Shown here: piece after piece, positions 3,934 to 22,660 of the stretch
Position numbering within the stretch: position 1 is the first letter of the stretch
Layout of the letters: each line of letters begins with the position of its first letter
NCBI RefSeq assembly: GCF_017571465.1
Contig: NZ_JAGETV010000001.1
Span: 62,001-126,000 of the forward strand
Direction: 5' to 3'
Source: Thiomicrorhabdus marina
GTDB taxonomy: Bacteria > Pseudomonadota > Gammaproteobacteria > Thiomicrospirales > Thiomicrospiraceae
Length of the DNA stretch: 64,000 nucleotides
Translations under genes and position numbers: made by a program
The notes under the pieces: generated by a model
Seen by the model: the letters and a program-made list of their open reading frames with translations, nothing else
Told to the model about the DNA's origin: nothing
The model's database searches: none

Positions 3934-4099
3934 TACGCATCCTAATTGCTGTTGGTTGAAATGTTACAATATAACAGTCTTGCCAGACTTCTGTCATCCT
4001 TTCGATGCCAAAATTCCACACCACCGGTTTACTCTATGCAGGGAGGTGTTAGAATGCGCCTATTGTATCTTATGGCTCGATTTTTTTCGGAGTGAATTC

Positions 4100-4687
4100 A
4101 TGACAAGACGTTTATTTTTAACCCTAAAAGCAGTGACTTTAGGAGCATTACTGAGCTTTTCCTTCAATGCGACTGCACAGACGGAAAACCCTCAAGTTTT
4201 GTTGGAAACTTCTAAGGGAAATATCACCCTTGAATTAAATGCGAACAAAGCGCCAAAGTCCGTCGCGAACTTTTTAGGTTACGTAAACAGCGGCTATTAT
4301 GATGGTTTGATTTTCCACCGAGTCATTAACGGTTTTATGATTCAAGGTGGCGGACTAGATGGATCTATGAAAAAGAAACCGAGTAAAGCGCCAATCATCA
4401 ATGAAGCCGATAATGGCTTAAGCAATGATCGCGGCACCATTGCGATGGCAAGAACCGGCGACCCGCATTCAGCCACCTCGCAATTTTTTATCAACCATAA
4501 AGACAACAATTTCCTGAACCATACAGGGAAAAATTCCCGAGGCTGGGGTTATGCCGTGTTCGGTAAAGTAACACAAGGAATGGATGTCGTTGATGCCATT
4601 GCTAAAGTCAGCACCACACGGGTAAACGGTCGCGGAGATGTTCCGGCTAAACCAATCATCATTATCAAAGCCAGTCAGATTAAATAA
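4100..4687 (+). CDS. Periplasmic cyclophilin-type peptidyl-prolyl isomerase, copy 1
   Basis: Catalyses cis-trans isomerisation of Xaa-Pro bonds. The open frame extends upstream to 3956, but ATG 4100 is chosen because GGAG stands 7 nt before it and it starts a clean signal peptide (MTRRLFLTLK to NATAQ). The mature part carries cyclophilin landmarks FHRVINGFMIQGGG, the substrate-site segment HSATSQFFIN, and WGYAVFGKV. Length is 195 residues. The N-terminus is almost identical to that of the next gene, so the two are recent tandem duplicates that have diverged in the mature domain. Confidence 0.9.
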   Translation: MTRRLFLTLKAVTLGALLSFSFNATAQTENPQVLLETSKGNITLELNANKAPKSVANFLGYVNSGYYDGLIFHRVINGFMIQGGGLDGSMKKKPSKAPIINEADNGLSNDRGTIAMARTGDPHSATSQFFINHKDNNFLNHTGKNSRGWGYAVFGKVTQGMDVVDAIAKVSTTRVNGRGDVPAKPIIIIKASQIK

Positions 4688-4871
4688 TCTGCTCTTCTTC
4701 TCTGCTAAAAGCCGCATCATTGTTTGCGGTTTTTTTATGCCTACCGTTCGCATCCATAGAATATTAAGGCTGTTTTCAATCTGCGTTTAACAACAAGCTT
4801 TCATCTCTGTTTTCAGGTGTTAAAATTGCGCCTAGTATTTTCAAGCATTTCATTAAATTTTGGAGCCAAGC

Positions 4872-5462
4872 ATGACTAGACGTCTATTTTTAGCCCTTAA
4901 AGCAATCGCCTTAGGTTCGTTATTGAGTTTTTCAATCAATGCCTCTGCCGCGACCAGCAATCCGCAAGTATTAATCGAAACCAACAAAGGGCCGATTTTG
5001 GTCGAACTTTATGCCGATAAAGCGCCAAAAACCGTTGAAAACTTTTTAACTTACGTTAATGAAAAATTCTACGACGGCACCATTTTCCACCGAGTTATCA
5101 AAAACTTTATGGTACAAGGCGGCGGTTTTGATAAATACCTGAACCGCAAACCAACCCATGCCGAAATCAAAAGCGAAGCCGACAACGGTCTGCGCAACCG
5201 CATTGGCACTCTGGCGATGGCACGTACGGATGATCCTCATTCGGCAAGTTCGCAGTTCTTCATCAACACCAACCAAAACGGTTTTCTTGACCACCGCGAA
5301 AAATCTTCTTCGCGTGCTTGGGGCTATACGGTGTTTGGTCGAGTGATTAAAGGCATGCGTGTGGTTAACGAAATCAGTCATGTACGTACCGGTTTTAAAG
5401 ATGGTATGGGTGACGTACCGGCAGAAACGATTGAAATTATTAAAGCAAGACAAGTAAAGTAA
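4872..5462 (+). CDS. Periplasmic cyclophilin-type peptidyl-prolyl isomerase, copy 2
   Basis: The start at ATG 4872 has GGAG 6 nt upstream and gives a signal peptide (MTRRLFLALK to NASAA) paralogous to that of the preceding gene. A TTG at 4860 overlaps the ribosome-binding site and is unlikely to be used. Cyclophilin motifs FHRVIKNFMVQGGG, HSASSQFFIN and WGYTVFGRV are present in 196 residues. It is likely co-transcribed with the third, cytoplasmic copy 19 nt downstream. Confidence 0.9.
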   Translation: MTRRLFLALKAIALGSLLSFSINASAATSNPQVLIETNKGPILVELYADKAPKTVENFLTYVNEKFYDGTIFHRVIKNFMVQGGGFDKYLNRKPTHAEIKSEADNGLRNRIGTLAMARTDDPHSASSQFFINTNQNGFLDHREKSSSRAWGYTVFGRVIKGMRVVNEISHVRTGFKDGMGDVPAETIEIIKARQVK

Positions 5463-5481
5463 AAACAAGGAATTAATTAGA

Positions 5482-5985
5482 ATGTCTAAAGTTATTATCA
5501 GCACCACCATGGGTGATATTACAGTCCAACTAGACGATGAAAAAGCACCGGTTGGCGCAGAAAACTTTATCCACTATGTGATGGAAGGTTTTTATAAAGG
5601 CACGCTATTCCACCGCATCATTCCTAATTTCATGGTACAAGGCGGCGGTCTATTACCAGGTATGGAAGATAAAGACGGCGGCGATCCAATTGAAAACGAA
5701 GCTGATAACGGTCTGAAAAATGTTCGCGGCAGCTTAGCTTACGCAAGAACGATGGACCCGCATTCAGCGACTTCGCAATTCTTTATCAACTTAAAAGACA
5801 ACAGCTTTTTAGACCATACCGGTAAAAACCCGCAAGGTTGGGGCTATGCCGTATTCGGACAAGTTGTCGAAGGGATGGACATTGTCGATGCGATGGCAGG
5901 CGTAGAAACCACTTCACGCCGTGGTCACCAAGATGTGCCGGTTGAAGACATTTTAATTACTAAAACAACACTTATCGAAGACTAA
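5482..5985 (+). CDS. ppiB: Cytoplasmic peptidyl-prolyl cis-trans isomerase B
   Basis: The third cyclophilin in the row, 167 residues, lacks a signal peptide and matches the length of cytoplasmic PpiB. Motifs: FHRIIPNFMVQGGG, HSATSQFFIN, WGYAVFGQV. The cysS-ppiB-lpxH arrangement seen in other gammaproteobacteria suggests this copy is the ancestral gene and the two signal-bearing copies were added between it and cysS. A strong terminator follows. Confidence 0.95.
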   Translation: MSKVIISTTMGDITVQLDDEKAPVGAENFIHYVMEGFYKGTLFHRIIPNFMVQGGGLLPGMEDKDGGDPIENEADNGLKNVRGSLAYARTMDPHSATSQFFINLKDNSFLDHTGKNPQGWGYAVFGQVVEGMDIVDAMAGVETTSRRGHQDVPVEDILITKTTLIED

Positions 5986-9276: not shown

Positions 9277-9552
9277 AAGCAGACTCAAAATAGTGGGTTG
9301 AAAATTTTCGGCATTACTATAGCAGACTATGCACCTAGTTTTGCTGACAAGAAATGGTTCAGACAACGTATTACAAGAAACAGAATGTGGCGCATTCGCC
9401 CTGCTGGCGGAACTAATACAGCCTCTGATTCGTAAAGTGCCAGCTTAATCTGTACGGGAGTATTTTCGTAGCCTACTTTCAATCCGTGTCAAAACCATGC
9501 TCAGGTTTATTGAAATTGTGAATAAATCAAAGAAGTATTTTTCCAGAGCTTT

Positions 9553-10008
9553 TTACATCACAGAAATATAGATATTGATAGCAGTTTCATTTTTGTAGTG
9601 TTCGAAATCGGTTTTATAAGCTCTTTTATACTCTGAATCATCGAGGCTGAAGTAATCCCATACTCTGCCCCAAGTCTCGATAACCGCTTGAATTCTTGCC
9701 TTATCATCAGCTGATTTCGCTTGGCTTTCAAAAACGAGATACTTCCCTTTCAAAATAGTTACTTTCTCAAGAGAATCATTTCGGCTCTCGGTTCCTGCGA
9801 GTACTTGAAACTCACCATTTGCATCAGATTGATAATCATAATAAACACCATAAACTCTCTCGCCGGCTTGATAATTAACCGGCACTTCACGGTCAAATTT
9901 TTGCCATGTTTTACCAATCTTTGCCGTTTCAGGATTCATCTCATTTGCATTCGTTGTCCTAACCGAAATTCCATAGATTTCTTTCTCATCAACATCAACA
10001 ACATTCAT
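9553..10008 (-). CDS. GyrI-like / Cass2-type effector-binding domain protein (cassette gene)
   Basis: A 151-residue free-standing effector-binding domain of the kind found at the C-terminus of AraC/MerR regulators. Features that match: GISVRTTNANEMNP near the start, VYGVYYDYQSDANGEF in the middle, ILKGKYLVFES, and the tail YKRAYKTDFEHY. Cass2, a known integron cassette protein that binds cationic drugs, belongs to this fold, and this gene abuts an attC-like site, which supports a cassette origin. It has no DNA-binding domain. GGAGG stands 5 nt before the ATG. No attC site is visible downstream (9367-9552), so the cassette end may be lost. The ligand is unknown. Confidence 0.75.
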   Translation of the reverse strand: MNVVDVDEKEIYGISVRTTNANEMNPETAKIGKTWQKFDREVPVNYQAGERVYGVYYDYQSDANGEFQVLAGTESRNDSLEKVTILKGKYLVFESQAKSADDKARIQAVIETWGRVWDYFSLDDSEYKRAYKTDFEHYKNETAINIYISVM

Positions 10009-10029
10009 AAAGCCTCCATTCTGCTCTTA

Positions 10030-10122
10030 CTATAACGGGACGGGAAAATCTTCGTGGCTTCGCGCACGGAAAATTTTAATTTTTTAGGTGTGAAACACGA
10101 CAGGTTGATTGCATTGTTAGAC
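10030..10122 (-). other. attC-like recombination site (long variant)
   Basis: Read on the minus strand it runs from GTCTAAC (10122-10116) to GTTATAG (10036-10030), the R'' and R' boxes of an attC site. An imperfect hairpin with a GCGAAGC loop lies between them. About 38 nt of its left arm (10075-10112) recur with two mismatches at 12404-12441. Confidence 0.65.
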
Positions 10123-10158
10123 TGCCGCAGGCGGTCTGACAAGGGAATCTGCGGTCGG

Positions 10159-10219
10159 CTCTAACGTTTAAGTTAAGGGGCGCGCCGTTAGGCGCGTCCC
10201 TTTGAACTGATTGTTAGGC
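10159..10219 (-). other. attC recombination site
   Basis: On the minus strand it begins GCCTAAC (R'') and ends GTTAGAG (R'). The inner arms AAAGGGACGCGCC and GGCGCGCCCCTT form the long imperfect stem typical of attC. L''-like text AATCAGTTCAA follows R'' as in class 1 integron sites. At 61 nt this is one of the two clearest sites. It lies only about 36 nt from the neighbouring site, so the cassette between them is essentially empty. Confidence 0.85.
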
Positions 10220-10258
10220 TTGGGAACCAGGACAATACAGCACAGTTAAATAAATGCT

Positions 10259-10513
10259 TTATAGTTTCATAGCAGTAAACAAGTGGCCATTGCCTACTAA
10301 AGTATAAAATATGCTGGCTTTGAGCCGTCCTTTAAAAAACCATTTGGCACTCTACAATACTCTCCCAAAAGTACTGGTAATCCGTTCAGAGCTATGCTGT
10401 GAGGTCGTACGCTTTTCACAAGGCCACCTTGCTTCCAGACGCCGCCTTAAATAGCTATATCCTGCCAGCTTACCTGGATAAATAGCACAGCGTTATTTCA
10501 AAAATTTAGCCAA
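10259..10513 (-). pseudogene. Degenerate cassette reading frame with two internal stops
   Basis: Between two attC sites an 85-codon frame opens at TTG 10513, just after a near-perfect ribosome-binding site (AAGGAGGTGA). The frame is interrupted by TAA at codon 7 (10493-10495) and TAG at codon 54 (10352-10354) and closes with TAA at 10259. The peptide between reads RCAIYPGKLAGYSYLRRR, later SERITSTFGRVL and KWFFKGRLKASIFYTLVGNG. It stays in one frame and has protein-like composition, so it looks like a gene inactivated by nonsense changes. An alternative is a non-coding cassette whose open frame is chance. No family is recognised. Confidence 0.45.
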
Positions 10514-10538
10514 TAAAATCACCTCCTTTATTCTTCAA

Positions 10539-10616
10539 GCCTAACGCTGAGCGCACCGGTGACCTTTACAGAGCGAAGCGACGTAAAGGACATCCGTGTG
10601 ACGCGTATTGTTAGCC
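10539..10616 (-). other. attC recombination site
   Basis: On the minus strand it runs from GGCTAAC (10616-10610) to GTTAGGC (10545-10539), with a long stem including GTCCTTTACGTCGC and GCTCTGTAAAGG. The stop codon of the HEPN-like cassette gene lies inside the R'' box, the usual arrangement in a gene cassette. 78 nt. Confidence 0.88.
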
Positions 10617-11279
10617 ATTGTAGCTTTGAATATGACTCTGAACCTCTAGATCAAGCTTTTCGAAAAAGGACTCCAGAACTTTGAGGAAGAAGTCAATGAA
10701 TTCAGGGTGAATATTTACAAAGCCACCTTCAACCCCGAGCAAATACTCAGAACTTTGAACAAACTTATTAACCTTAGATTTTGGATCATCAGGTAGGCCA
10801 CCACCATTATGCACTATCAAATTTCTAACTAGATTGACGCCTTTAATAATTGGCAGCTCATAGCCGAACTTCGATAAATCTATTTTGACCACCTTCGTCA
10901 AGTACAATAGTGCTCTTTCGACTCCATTGCCGTTCAAATCATTTAGCTTTAACTTGCTATCAATGCTTTCATAAAAAATTGAGCATAAGGTATTCAACTG
11001 GTGCTCTAAAAAATTGAAGATTGTTATGACTAGAGATTCCCTGTGTAATCCAGGATATTTACTTTGGCTTAAATGAAGCTCCCAAGAGTAATTATCTACA
11101 ATGTCTTCATGATGCTTTTCTGGATATTTCTCAAGAAGTTTACCAACCTCTTCCTGCAACTTGCTATCTTTTTCCTTCCAAGAGGCTTCAACCTCATGAT
11201 TGAATTACGCAAAGTCGATGAGCTCACTCTTGGCTAGGTGGCAGTGGATGCACAACCCATTCGCAAAAAAATCTACCAC
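10611..11279 (-). pseudogene. HEPN-like cassette gene interrupted by one in-frame stop
   Basis: The continuous open part runs 11159-10611 (182 residues, from a TTG). The same frame extends upstream to GTG 11279, which has AGAGG 5 nt before it; the only interruption is TAA at 11205-11207, codon 25 of 223. The upstream peptide reads VVDFFANGLCIHCHLAKSEL and the part after the stop reads FNHEVEASWKEKD, both protein-like. The largely helical protein carries VRNLIVHNGG, an R-N-x3-H motif (Arg152, His157 in the long frame) typical of HEPN domains, many of which are RNases in toxin-antitoxin or phage-defence systems. A C-to-T change (CAA to TAA) would explain the stop. A shorter product starting after the stop cannot be excluded. 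Confidence 0.6.
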
Positions 11280-11311
11280 TTCAGCCTCTCTTTAGCTTCT
11301 AAGGTTGGTCT

Positions 11312-11359
11312 GGCTAACGCCGCATTCAGCGGCTCGTCCGCTGCAATGCTTTGTTAGCC
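11312..11359 (-). other. attC recombination site (short)
   Basis: On the minus strand it runs from GGCTAAC (11359-11353) to GTTAGCC (11318-11312), which are perfect inverted repeats, with an inner hairpin CAGCGG/CCGCTG. It is 48 nt long and directly follows the stop of the next cassette gene (11363). Confidence 0.8.
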
Positions 11360-11362
11360 GAG

Positions 11363-12514
11363 TTATTTCTGTACTCGAATTTTCTCAAATTCCGTATACC
11401 CATAAAAAACATCCCCCACTGTATGAGACATAATCCCCGCCTTTAGAATTGAATCCATATCAATCTCTGATAACCTTAACGGTCGAGTCGAATACATGGG
11501 ATACTCCCAATTCCATAGTTCGTCGGTCTCTATACCATCTTCTCCCAATTTAAACATGTTAACCACTGCATAATGCGGCCCTAATACGGCGCCTCCATCA
11601 ATAAAAAAAGAAAGAGTTTGGATTTGGGCATACCCTTTGACTGTGTGATTTCTAAAAATGTAATCACCACCATTTCTTAGTGTAGAAAAATTCTGTTCTT
11701 CACCATTGTGATTTAAGGTCCATGATTCCTCTGAAATTCCTAGTTGTTTCAATTCGATTAGAGGCTTCGGCTTTGGATCTTCTTCGCCTACCATCCCAAA
11801 GTAATTATATGGTCTCCTACCACCCATTTTGGGGATTTTTAAAGGTGAGTTTATTGCATTAGATATTAACGGTAGGGTGTTCAAATTCCACTTGCTGTCA
11901 TCTTTTTTCGAAAGTATAAGCGGGCCTACAGAAGTTGAATCCGCCCAAATTGACTGTAATCTGATGTGTACTTCTGATATTCCATCGCCATCGAAATCAA
12001 TGACTTCTATCTTATCTACTAAAAGAGAGTTGAAATATGGAGCCTCATAACTAGTTAAAGAAGCTAAGTTGAAAAACCCTGTGCGCCCTACTAGTTTGTC
12101 GAAGACGCTGGGGGGCATTCTTTCAAAAATAGATACCCACCGGTAAATATTTTCATTTATTTTTGTCGAGCCAGACAAAATTATGCTCTTATCTGCACCT
12201 GCTTCGAGTTCTGTTGAAGAGATCTTATCGATATTGTTTTCAGTTATCACATCCCCATATCTCCTCTTCATTTCATCTAGGGATATCTCAAGCAACTCAT
12301 GCTTTACATCTTTCGGAGAAACCGGATTAGAGCTAAAGAAAAACAGTAAGATGGTTATAATTCCACCTAGCAGTAAAGAAAATACATAAGAGAATAGATT
12401 GTCTTTAATTTTTTGGGTGTGAAACACGTCAGGTTGATTGCCTTTGCAAATAGATAAAGTTTTCATCTGTTTTAATTTCATCAAAACCAGATTTTTTATA
12501 AAATCTGTAAGCAT
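11363..12514 (-). CDS. Membrane-anchored protein of unknown function (cassette gene)
   Basis: No family is recognised with confidence. Up to 383 residues: a strongly hydrophobic segment (about residues 40-63, SYVFSLLLGG to ILLFFF) followed by a large hydrophilic domain, so it is probably anchored in the inner membrane with the bulk outside. It contains IDFDGDGISEV, an Asp-rich motif like the calcium-binding loops of VCBS/FG-GAP repeats. The first 33 residues as drawn overlap the GNAT gene and run through a damaged attC half-site, so the real start is unresolved; no good ATG lies closer to the membrane segment. The 5' end may have been altered when two cassettes fused. An attC site follows the stop. 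Confidence 0.55.
   Translation of the reverse strand: MLTDFIKNLVLMKLKQMKTLSICKGNQPDVFHTQKIKDNLFSYVFSLLLGGIITILLFFFSSNPVSPKDVKHELLEISLDEMKRRYGDVITENNIDKISSTELEAGADKSIILSGSTKINENIYRWVSIFERMPPSVFDKLVGRTGFFNLASLTSYEAPYFNSLLVDKIEVIDFDGDGISEVHIRLQSIWADSTSVGPLILSKKDDSKWNLNTLPLISNAINSPLKIPKMGGRRPYNYFGMVGEEDPKPKPLIELKQLGISEESWTLNHNGEEQNFSTLRNGGDYIFRNHTVKGYAQIQTLSFFIDGGAVLGPHYAVVNMFKLGEDGIETDELWNWEYPMYSTRPLRLSEIDMDSILKAGIMSHTVGDVFYGYTEFEKIRVQK
12404..12441 (-). repeat. Half attC remnant shared with the site at 10030-10122
   Basis: These 38 nt match 10075-10112 at all but two positions (around GGTGTGAAACACG and CAGGTTGATTGC). In the intact site this is the R''-proximal arm; here the R' half is missing and the sequence runs straight into the next gene. 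The GNAT stop (TGA, 12431-12429) lies within it. Confidence 0.65.
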
Positions 12515-12863
12515 CTTTATTTACTTTGAAACAGTTGAGTTTTAAAAGGTTTCCAGAGGTTAAAGGTTGGAGCATATCTAGAATTTTAGTCCCAATGCCC
12601 TTTGACTGATATTCAGGTATTAAAATTAGCATCCTGATAAATAATGCATTTTCTTTTTGCTGGGTTTGCAAATATCCAGCTACGCATCCATTAACAAAAA
12701 TAATTTCTGTCTTACTTTGCTTGAGACCTAAATTGAAATCGTTTTCTTGCCAGTTTTGATCCCAACCCCATATTTTTCTAATATGAGGTTTCATCGCATT
12801 TACATATGTTCTCCATATGTATGCTTTATCATTATTATCGTATTTCTGAAAATGAATTTTCAT
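12429..12863 (-). CDS. GNAT-family N-acetyltransferase (cassette gene)
   Basis: A 144-residue acetyl-CoA-dependent acetyltransferase. ATG 12863 is chosen because the frame upstream runs through an attC site. The acetyl-CoA loop motif (Q/R-x2-G-x-G/A) is visible as QSKGIGTKIL, followed by the typical C-terminal NKDAYRFYKKSGF segment. The substrate is unknown; GNAT enzymes are among the commonest integron cassette products and range from antibiotic modification to toxin function. The end of the gene overlaps the attC remnant at 12404-12441. Confidence 0.85.
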   Translation of the reverse strand: MKIHFQKYDNNDKAYIWRTYVNAMKPHIRKIWGWDQNWQENDFNLGLKQSKTEIIFVNGCVAGYLQTQQKENALFIRMLILIPEYQSKGIGTKILDMLQPLTSGNLLKLNCFKVNKDAYRFYKKSGFDEIKTDENFIYLQRQST

Positions 12864-12866
12864 GAT

Positions 12867-12927
12867 ATATAACGACCAAAGTAAGTGTGCGGTGCGTAGC
12901 ACCATTCGCTTGAGTGCATTGTTATAA
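12867..12927 (-). other. attC recombination site
   Basis: On the minus strand it runs from TTATAAC near 12927 to GTTATAT near 12867, with an inner GGTGCTACGCACC hairpin and the R''-proximal text AATGCACTCAAGCG that resembles attC L'' boxes. The preceding gene's stop codon lies in R''. 61 nt. Confidence 0.8.
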
Positions 12928-13305
12928 ATTAAAGCCATACTGAATGATCTGTAGACCTATTAGATAATATGGGACACCTAGAAATAGCCACAGCGCATAG
13001 TCTGCTCTCTTTAACGTTTTAAATGCTTGCTTTAATGGTGTAGGTTTAAATTCAGGATCAACAAAAGGTATTTTGAAGTCTGGAAAATATAACTTTGTTA
13101 TTGATCCGCTTACATGGAACATTGCATAAAAAGTAGCTAATACTGAAAGTAGAATGATAATACTAATAAATAAGAGCTTATATGTAAGTGGTTCACTATT
13201 AAGTGAGGGCATAGCTAGTTTAAGCAAACCAGCGATAAAAACAAAATATGTGATAGCTTGAAAAAAATCTTTTAACAAATCTTTATTAGCAATGAACTTT
13301 TTCAT
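12922..13305 (-). CDS. Small multi-pass membrane protein (cassette gene)
   Basis: No family recognised. 127 residues with about three or four hydrophobic segments (near residues 13-30, 42-62 and 103-123) and a basic, proline-containing loop (FKIPFVDPEFKPTP). AGGA stands 5 nt before the ATG. The stop lies in the R'' box of the attC site, so this is a complete cassette. Small membrane proteins of unknown function are frequent in chromosomal integron arrays (established), but a role cannot be read from this sequence. Confidence 0.65.
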   Translation of the reverse strand: MKKFIANKDLLKDFFQAITYFVFIAGLLKLAMPSLNSEPLTYKLLFISIIILLSVLATFYAMFHVSGSITKLYFPDFKIPFVDPEFKPTPLKQAFKTLKRADYALWLFLGVPYYLIGLQIIQYGFNL

Positions 13306-13320
13306 AATATTCCTATTTAT

Positions 13321-13350
13321 TTATAACGGGGTGCTGAGGTCTGGTTAAGA
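13321..13350 (-). other. Possible reduced attC site
   Basis: On the minus strand TCTTAAC and GTTATAA stand in R''/R' order but only 16 nt apart, far shorter than a normal attC. It lies between two cassette genes where a site is expected. It may be a deleted site or chance. Confidence 0.35.
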
Positions 13351-13356
13351 GAATTG

Positions 13357-13716
13357 CTATCTTGTTGATTTATTGTGATAGTAATAAAGATACGCTAGAC
13401 CAACTGGCGCAATAAAAATAGCAAAAAACCAGCAAATCATTATTGTGAAAACTTTTACAAGAATGACTAGAAAAACATTAACGAAAAGCATATTTTCACC
13501 CATTACAAAATCAACAATACTTTCGTAAACAAACCTTGAGTATGGGTATAAAAAAGTACTCAGTACAACAAAAGGATAAAATGCCCATTCTGTAGGCCGA
13601 GTAGCATTCATTTCCATATATACAACAAATGCTGTTATGAACAGACCAAAAAATAAATTTCTAAAGTAGTACTGAGTTGTTAGACCGCCAAACGTTTTCT
13701 GAATAATTTCTTTCAT
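13357..13716 (-). CDS. Small three-helix membrane protein (cassette gene)
   Basis: 119 residues with three clear hydrophobic stretches (about 21-35, 47-58 and 78-112), the last ending IFIAPVGLAYLYYY. GGGAA precedes the ATG. No enzymatic motif is seen. It is the rightmost gene of the cassette cluster and lies between two short attC-like sites, so it would be the cassette nearest the platform if an integrase once stood to the right. Function unknown. Confidence 0.6.
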   Translation of the reverse strand: MKEIIQKTFGGLTTQYYFRNLFFGLFITAFVVYMEMNATRPTEWAFYPFVVLSTFLYPYSRFVYESIVDFVMGENMLFVNVFLVILVKVFTIMICWFFAIFIAPVGLAYLYYYHNKSTR

Positions 13717-13936
13717 TTGATTCCCATAGTTTTGATACTAATTTTAAATATAGATTTGTTTCTGAGACATTGCTCTAACAAACTTAGAAAAAGTCGTTAC
13801 CGCGACTATTCTATATCAAAAATATCACATTTAATTGCATAAAACGCATTTACCAAGATCAATTCATAAAGCCTTTGTGTGTAAATACTTACTAGCCCAC
13901 TTACCCTTTTTATAGAACGAGGTTTTAAAAACCAAA

Positions 13937-13967
13937 AAGGCGCTAGAGACTATTGCTCTAACGCCTT
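13937..13967 (-). terminator. Terminator of argG
   Basis: A 12-bp stem (13937-13948 with 13956-13967), fully paired on the minus strand if one G-U pair is allowed, followed there by five T. It contains GTTAGAG but is better explained as a terminator than as an attC box. Confidence 0.7.
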
Positions 13968-13981
13968 CTTATGCTTCACAG

Positions 13982-14001
13982 ATTCCCACTTTCGTGGGAA
14001 T
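13982..14001. repeat. REP-like palindrome
   Basis: Perfect 8-bp inverted repeat ATTCCCAC/GTGGGAAT with loop TTTC, followed by TGACG. This resembles the REP-type palindromes (GTCATTCCC...GGGAATC) found widely in proteobacterial intergenic regions. Only one copy was noticed here. Confidence 0.5.
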
Positions 14002-14022
14002 GACGCGACAAATCTAGATGTA

Positions 14023-22457: not shown

Positions 22458-22533
22458 TGGTGGGTCGTGAGCGATTCGAACGCTCGACCAATTGATTAAA
22501 AGTCAACTGCTCTACCGGCTGAGCTAACGACCC
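22458..22533 (-). tRNA. tRNA-Lys (anticodon TTT)
   Basis: Minus-strand cloverleaf of 76 nt starting GGGTCGTTAGCTCAG and ending GACCCACCA with encoded CCA. The anticodon loop is CTTTTAA, the T-arm GGTTCGAATC-like (GCGTTCGAATCGC). It differs from its neighbour in the D-loop (GCCGGT in place of GTTGGT). Confidence 0.97.
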
Positions 22534-22584: not shown

Positions 22585-22660
22585 TGGTGGGTCGTGAGCG
22601 ATTCGAACGCTCGACCAATTGATTAAAAGTCAACTGCTCTACCAACTGAGCTAACGACCC
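22585..22660 (-). tRNA. tRNA-Lys (anticodon TTT), second copy
   Basis: 76 nt on the minus strand, same body as the other copy apart from the D-loop (AGTTGGTAGAGC), with encoded CCA. The 51-nt spacer indicates co-transcription as a two-tRNA operon ending at the hairpin at 22418-22450. Confidence 0.97.

What the first reader, a model, noticed from the sequence alone, without database searches (positions are those of the whole stretch)
10611..11279. HEPN-like cassette gene with a single in-frame stop: decay or re-initiation
A 223-codon frame with a good ribosome-binding site before GTG 11279 is broken only by TAA at codon 25. Both sides of the stop read as protein, and a CAA-to-TAA change would explain it. 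The main part has the R-N-x3-H motif of HEPN RNases, which often act in toxin-antitoxin or phage defence. A toxin-like gene carried without a visible antitoxin would be under pressure to be inactivated.
Basis: partly seen in the sequence, partly recalled or inferred. Interest (0 to 1): 0.65.

Follow-up and report, generated by a model that had tools for sequence, protein, structure and literature searches.

The report
Broken HEPN gene in integron cassette
A mobile gene cassette in this bacterium carries a probable RNA-cutting (HEPN) defence protein gene that has been cut short by a single stop codon, while intact relatives sit on plasmids, in prophages and in another bacterium's cassette.

Summary
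On the minus strand, GTG 11279 to TAA 10611 is one 222-codon frame broken only by TAA at codon 25 (11207-11205). The frame is a single-gene integron cassette: attC-type hairpins lie at 11359-11312 and 10616-10539, and the gene's own stop lies in the second. The segment before the stop is genuine: an intact homologue of identical length (222 aa, 70% identical, Alloalcanivorax gelatiniphagus) aligns without gaps there too, with most differences at third codon positions; no intact homologue examined starts after codon 40. The protein fits the HEPN superfamily: Rx4H nearly invariant, an acidic residue in the helix before it, HEPN toxins as the top seven structural matches (Z about 9, moderate), repeated weak hits to an RT-associated HEPN defence profile. 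Relatives are single genes on plasmids and in prophages, some beside known defence genes. Not supported: CAA to TAA (no homologue has Gln; the nearest have Ser and Gly) and re-initiation (a TTG restart loses about 40 of 50 residues of helix 1). The 'no antitoxin' argument is weakened by many intact stand-alone copies. Best reading: a recently inactivated member of an unnamed, probably defensive HEPN family. Sequencing error is not excluded.

The parts
10611..11279 (-). Reading frame of the cassette gene (222 codons + stop), GTG start, interrupted at codon 25
   Evidence: gap-free alignment to intact 222-aa homologue L039
11205..11207 (-). Premature stop TAA, codon 25, in the middle of predicted helix 1
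   Evidence: homologous column is Ser (L039), Gly (L010/L040), His (L002), never Gln; helix H2-51 in model
11285..11290 (-). Shine-Dalgarno-like GAGAGG, 5 nt before GTG
10611..11159 (-). 182-codon open frame after the stop, from TTG (codon 41); possible but unlikely re-initiation product
10809..10826 (-). R152-N-L-I-V-H157, the HEPN Rx4H motif, at the end of predicted helix H141-158
   Evidence: (R152, H157 at least 90% conserved)
11312..11359 (-). attC-type site 5' of the gene (belongs to the upstream cassette); perfect end boxes, hairpin -16.8 kcal/mol
10539..10616 (-). attC-type site of this cassette; the gene's own stop TAA lies in its first box
10545..11317 (-). Inferred cassette (773 bp) between the two recombination points
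   Evidence: inferred from the attC positions
9553..10008 (-). Neighbouring cassette-type gene, Cass2 / GyrI-like effector-binding protein, intact
   Evidence: PF14526, E 1.7e-20
11363..12514 (-). Upstream cassette-type gene, 383 aa, no family found

Best explanation
A single-gene integron cassette that once made a 222-aa HEPN-superfamily protein, most likely a metal-independent RNase of the abortive-infection type, carried in an integrase-less cassette cluster between pgpA and argG. This copy is recently inactivated by an in-frame TAA at codon 25, inside the long first helix, so at most a 24-residue peptide or an N-terminally truncated, probably non-functional product is made. Shown: frame, cassette limits, homology on both sides of the stop, past purifying selection, intact relatives. 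Inferred: HEPN fold and RNase function, defence role, loss of function.
For: Gap-free alignment with the intact homologue and third-position bias on both sides of the stop; synonymous differences saturated (pS 0.87) against pN 0.195 versus the Hydrogenovibrio SC-1 copy, and pN 0.10 before the stop. attC hairpins flank the gene; 2 such sites in the 4.75-kb cluster, 0 in 48.7 kb of the same window. R152 and H157 are conserved and E92 lies in the preceding long helix. The seven best solved structures are HEPN toxins (Z 8.7-9.6). RTasHEPN profile hits occur in the window protein and several relatives. Neighbours of relatives include PARIS-like AriA/AriB, PD-T4-5, AbiJ and AbiQ, and a prophage position beside int (L050). 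An intact frame is the rule in relatives.
Against: No Pfam or NCBIfam family matches. The structural Z is below the level trusted for helical bundles and Foldseek E-values are 0.5 or more. No activity data exist. The stop cannot be checked against reads, and TAA differs from the codons of the two nearest homologues (AGC, GGT) at all three positions, so its history is unclear.
Confidence: 0.72

Rival explanations
1. The gene is still functional through re-initiation at TTG 11159, giving a 182-aa HEPN core.
For: The frame after the stop is open to the end; a purine-rich AAGGAAAA lies upstream of TTG, with about 13 nt spacing; the motif residues are retained.
Against: All intact homologues examined begin well before codon 40; the restart removes about 40 of 50 residues of helix 1; the start codon is weak and the spacing long.
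Confidence: 0.1
2. The TAA is a sequencing or assembly error and the gene is intact.
For: It is the only lesion in the frame; constraint on both sides is strong.
Against: The draft is 99.99% complete with 0.64% contamination; a single substitution error in a unique region of an assembly is uncommon (own knowledge) and no homopolymer lies there. Not testable here, as reads and other isolates are not held.
Confidence: 0.12
3. About the cause of the loss, not about the loss itself: it is passive. Cassettes far from an integron promoter are silent, so the gene drifted rather than being purged as toxic.
For: The cluster has no integrase beside it; the genome's intI is on another contig. The other close cassette copy, Hydrogenovibrio SC-1, is independently broken by an indel in an A8 run.
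Against: The neighbouring Cass2 and GNAT genes look intact. Two of three known cassette copies broken is too few to tell drift from purging.
Confidence: 0.5
4. The stop is read through or recoded on purpose.
For: The frame is conserved beyond the stop.
Against: The column is variable among homologues and none of those aligned carries a stop there.
Confidence: 0.02

Closest known systems
Integron cassette HEPN family (PDB 3jrt; Anantharaman et al. 2013, PMC3710099)
   Same: HEPN with Rx4-6H carried in a gammaproteobacterial integron cassette, proposed there to act as an RNase in stress or conflict
   Different: No sequence match to that chain was listed with three different profiles; this copy is interrupted
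RTasHEPN of PADLOC-DB (listed under DRT)
   Same: The C-terminal half matches the profile (E about 2e-5) in the window protein and several relatives
   Different: The match is weak and partial; no reverse transcriptase was recognised in the neighbouring genes
HEPN/MNT toxin-antitoxin (PDB 7ae6, 7ae8, 8xdj)
   Same: Best structural matches (Z 8.7-9.6), Rx4-6H active site
   Different: About 10% identity, a longer first helix, no nucleotidyltransferase antitoxin gene beside it
Plasmid and prophage homologues found here (e.g. L002, L007, L041, L050, L054)
   Same: Same family by sequence, 19-36% identity, same Rx4H motif, single genes
   Different: Intact, not seen in integron cassettes, some beside known defence genes

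Membership tests
HEPN superfamily | Rx4-6H motif at the end of helix 3, polar residue after R | tested here: met
   R152-N-x3-H157; R and H at least 90% conserved; end of helix H141-158; definition from PMC3710099
HEPN superfamily | Acidic residue in helix 2 near the motif, often Ex3[KR] | tested here: inconclusive
   E92 is conserved and in helix H77-106, but the window has N at +4 (E. coli plasmid copies have K)
HEPN superfamily | All-alpha HEPN bundle | tested here: inconclusive
   Model pLDDT 84, pTM 0.80; HEPN toxins are the top seven, Z 8.7-9.6, rmsd 4.3-5.5 over 130-146 residues, next unrelated row Z 8.1; no significant Foldseek E-value
HEPN superfamily | RNase activity | not testable with these tools
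   needs biochemistry
Integron gene cassette | Single gene bounded by attC sites in the same orientation, stop codon at or in attC | tested here: met
   control
Complete integron | Integrase gene beside the cassettes | tested here: not met
   intI is at C81:76892-77842, the window on C11; the cluster is an integrase-less array
Integron cassette HEPN (3jrt family) | Sequence relationship to 3jrt | tested here: inconclusive
   not listed by profile searches of the PDB
DRT / RT-associated HEPN | Partner reverse transcriptase gene | tested here: not met
   no reverse transcriptase among the neighbouring cassette genes 9553-13716 by Pfam
HEPN/MNT toxin-antitoxin | Adjacent MNT nucleotidyltransferase antitoxin | tested here: not met
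   Pfam scan of the neighbours

The most novel reading that the evidence does not exclude
The intact relatives form an uncharacterised, self-sufficient one-protein HEPN defence family that needs no antitoxin and moves by integron cassettes, conjugative plasmids and prophages; cassette copies are repeatedly inactivated (stop here, frameshift in Hydrogenovibrio SC-1).
Probability: 0.4. Interest if true: 0.5.

Novelty: new member of a known kind. Interest (0 to 1): 0.32.

Why it matters
HEPN proteins in integron cassettes were already noted in 2013. What this adds is a sequence family without a Pfam or NCBIfam entry that links integron cassettes, plasmids and prophages, and a clear case of a cassette gene caught early in decay. 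The intact homologues make the family's function directly testable.

Tried and rejected
CAA-to-TAA origin: no homologue has Gln at codon 25. Pfam, NCBIfam and PHROGs: no family. PDB sequence searches gave only chance coiled-coil or helical matches. A single-protein scan of viral contigs and genome contigs found nothing; alignments were needed. The first structure model with 6 sequences was poor (pLDDT 66) and was replaced by a 17-sequence model. A conserved downstream partner was considered: a 150-aa gene follows some Enterobacteriaceae copies (L004, L007, L033, L043) but not others (L006, L034, L035, L036, L044) and has no counterpart in the cassette, so it is not a general antitoxin. No other copy was found in the other genomes of the genus that are held. 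A first attC scan with a strict pattern gave nothing and was relaxed.

Full report
Observation. The minus-strand frame from GTG 11279 to TAA 10611 has 222 codons plus the stop and one internal stop, TAA at codon 25 (11207-11205). GAGAGG lies 5 nt before the GTG. The first downstream in-frame start is TTG 11159, codon 41.

Anatomy. The gene fills one integron cassette. An attC-type hairpin with perfectly matching end boxes lies upstream at 11359-11312 (48 nt, -16.8 kcal/mol) and another lies downstream at 10616-10539 (78 nt, -15.8 kcal/mol); the gene's own stop is inside the first box of the second. The same kind of scan finds two such sites in the 4.75-kb cluster and none in 48.7 kb of the rest of the window. 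Neighbouring genes include a Cass2-type protein (PF14526) and a GNAT acetyltransferase. The genome has an intact integron integrase, but on another contig, so this is an integrase-less cassette cluster. It sits between pgpA and argG, which lie within roughly 30-200 bp of each other in many species of the genus, while the closest relatives carry inserts of about 4-14 kb there.

Is the part before the stop real? Yes. The nearest intact homologue, in Alloalcanivorax gelatiniphagus (L039:3926-4594, 222 aa, 70% identity), has exactly the same length and aligns without gaps; of 24 codons before the stop 19 are identical in amino acid and 14 of 21 nucleotide differences are at third positions. The second close copy, Hydrogenovibrio sp. 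SC-1 (L010/L040), begins MVDFFGNGLCIHCHLAKNELRDLAGFNQ against VVDFFANGLCIHCHLAKSELIDFA*FNH. Synonymous differences are saturated (pS 0.87) while pN is 0.195 overall and 0.10 before the stop. Had all 230 differences from the intact copy accrued without constraint, about 8.6 stops would be expected (P of at most one = 0.0015); with half of them neutral P is 0.036. The lesion is therefore young relative to the divergence; this bound is rough and ignores indels.

What was codon 25? Not evidently Gln. Across 17 homologues the column holds H, A, G, N, T, L, D, S or E, and the two nearest have AGC Ser and GGT Gly. The CAA-to-TAA route is possible but has no support. The column is variable, which also speaks against purposeful read-through.

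What is the protein? No Pfam or NCBIfam entry matches. PADLOC's RTasHEPN profile matches the C-terminal half of the window protein (E 2.7e-5) and of several relatives. R152 and H157 of R-N-L-I-V-H are at least 90% conserved, with E92 in the preceding long helix. A model from 17 aligned sequences (the window protein read through the stop as first row) has mean pLDDT 84 and pTM 0.80; helix 1 spans residues 2-51 and the stop falls in its middle. The seven best structures are HEPN toxins, Z 8.7-9.6, rmsd 4.3-5.5 over 130-146 residues. For a helical bundle this is moderate, and Foldseek alone gives no significant match. Motif position, conserved acid and fold together make HEPN the most likely assignment by the criteria of Anantharaman et al. 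2013 (PMC3710099).

Where do relatives live? 113 plasmid records match, mostly conjugative or mobilizable, and phage or prophage contigs match as well. Copies are single genes of about 200-260 aa. Neighbours include PARIS-like AriA and AriB (L041), PD-T4-5 (L003), AbiJ (L027) and AbiQ/ToxN (L006); in L050 the gene follows a tyrosine-recombinase-like gene, and in L054 it lies between tail-completion-like and baseplate-like genes (both assignments are my own reading of the ORFs). This is guilt by association for defence cargo, not proof.

Broken copies. Window (stop), Hydrogenovibrio SC-1 (1-nt indel in an A8 run), Enterobacter asburiae L033 (frameshift) and Serratia L003 (N-terminal region disrupted). 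The other copies that I translated were intact. Two of three cassette copies broken is suggestive but too few to test. Passive drift of silent cassettes and purging of a costly gene cannot be told apart here. The many intact stand-alone copies argue against a simple 'toxin without antitoxin must die' account.

Could it still work? A restart at TTG 11159 would keep the motif but lose about 40 of 50 residues of helix 1; no intact homologue examined lacks them all. I consider loss of function most likely, with re-initiation (about 0.1) and sequencing error (about 0.12) as the live rivals.

Verdict. A real, well-delimited, fairly ordinary event: a recently inactivated cassette gene of an unnamed HEPN family. 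The family is more interesting than the lesion.

Noticed in passing
window 9367-14022; L060-L065: The pgpA-argG interval looks like an insertion hotspot: about 30-200 bp in many species of the genus, but about 4-14 kb in the closest relatives. attC-like sites are sparse there in the siblings. In G028 a copy of the last 36 argG codons lies about 7 kb from the gene, as if an element had integrated at its 3' end.
   Followed up: partly
window 10075-10115 and 12404-12444; L062 near 4606: A 41-nt repeat (93% identical; GCAATCAACCTG..GTGTTTCACACC) occurs twice in the cassette cluster and in similar form in a sibling species at the same locus; possibly a shared attC half-site.
   Followed up: no
L010:5361-6036 (same gene in L040): The Hydrogenovibrio SC-1 homologue, also next to an attC-like sequence, is split by a 1-nt indel in a run of eight A; true indel, assembly slip and slippage cannot be told apart.
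   Followed up: partly
L041:1442-4774: Prophage contig with a PARIS-like AriA/AriB pair directly upstream of an intact HEPN homologue: a candidate defence locus.
   Followed up: partly
L045-L057: A phage-borne branch of the same family (motif RN[SA]CAHND), in L050 beside a tyrosine-recombinase-like gene and in L054 among late phage genes; the reading frame was intact in all copies seen.
   Followed up: partly
G000:C81:76892-77842: An intact integron integrase gene in the same genome, on another contig, with no strict attC pattern match near it.
   Followed up: partly
window 3956-5985: Three consecutive genes that look like peptidyl-prolyl isomerases (cyclophilin type); a 212-nt stretch of the first and third is 72% identical.
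   Followed up: no
window 22458-22533 and 22585-22660: Two near-identical tRNA-like sequences in tandem, differing at two bases.
   Followed up: no
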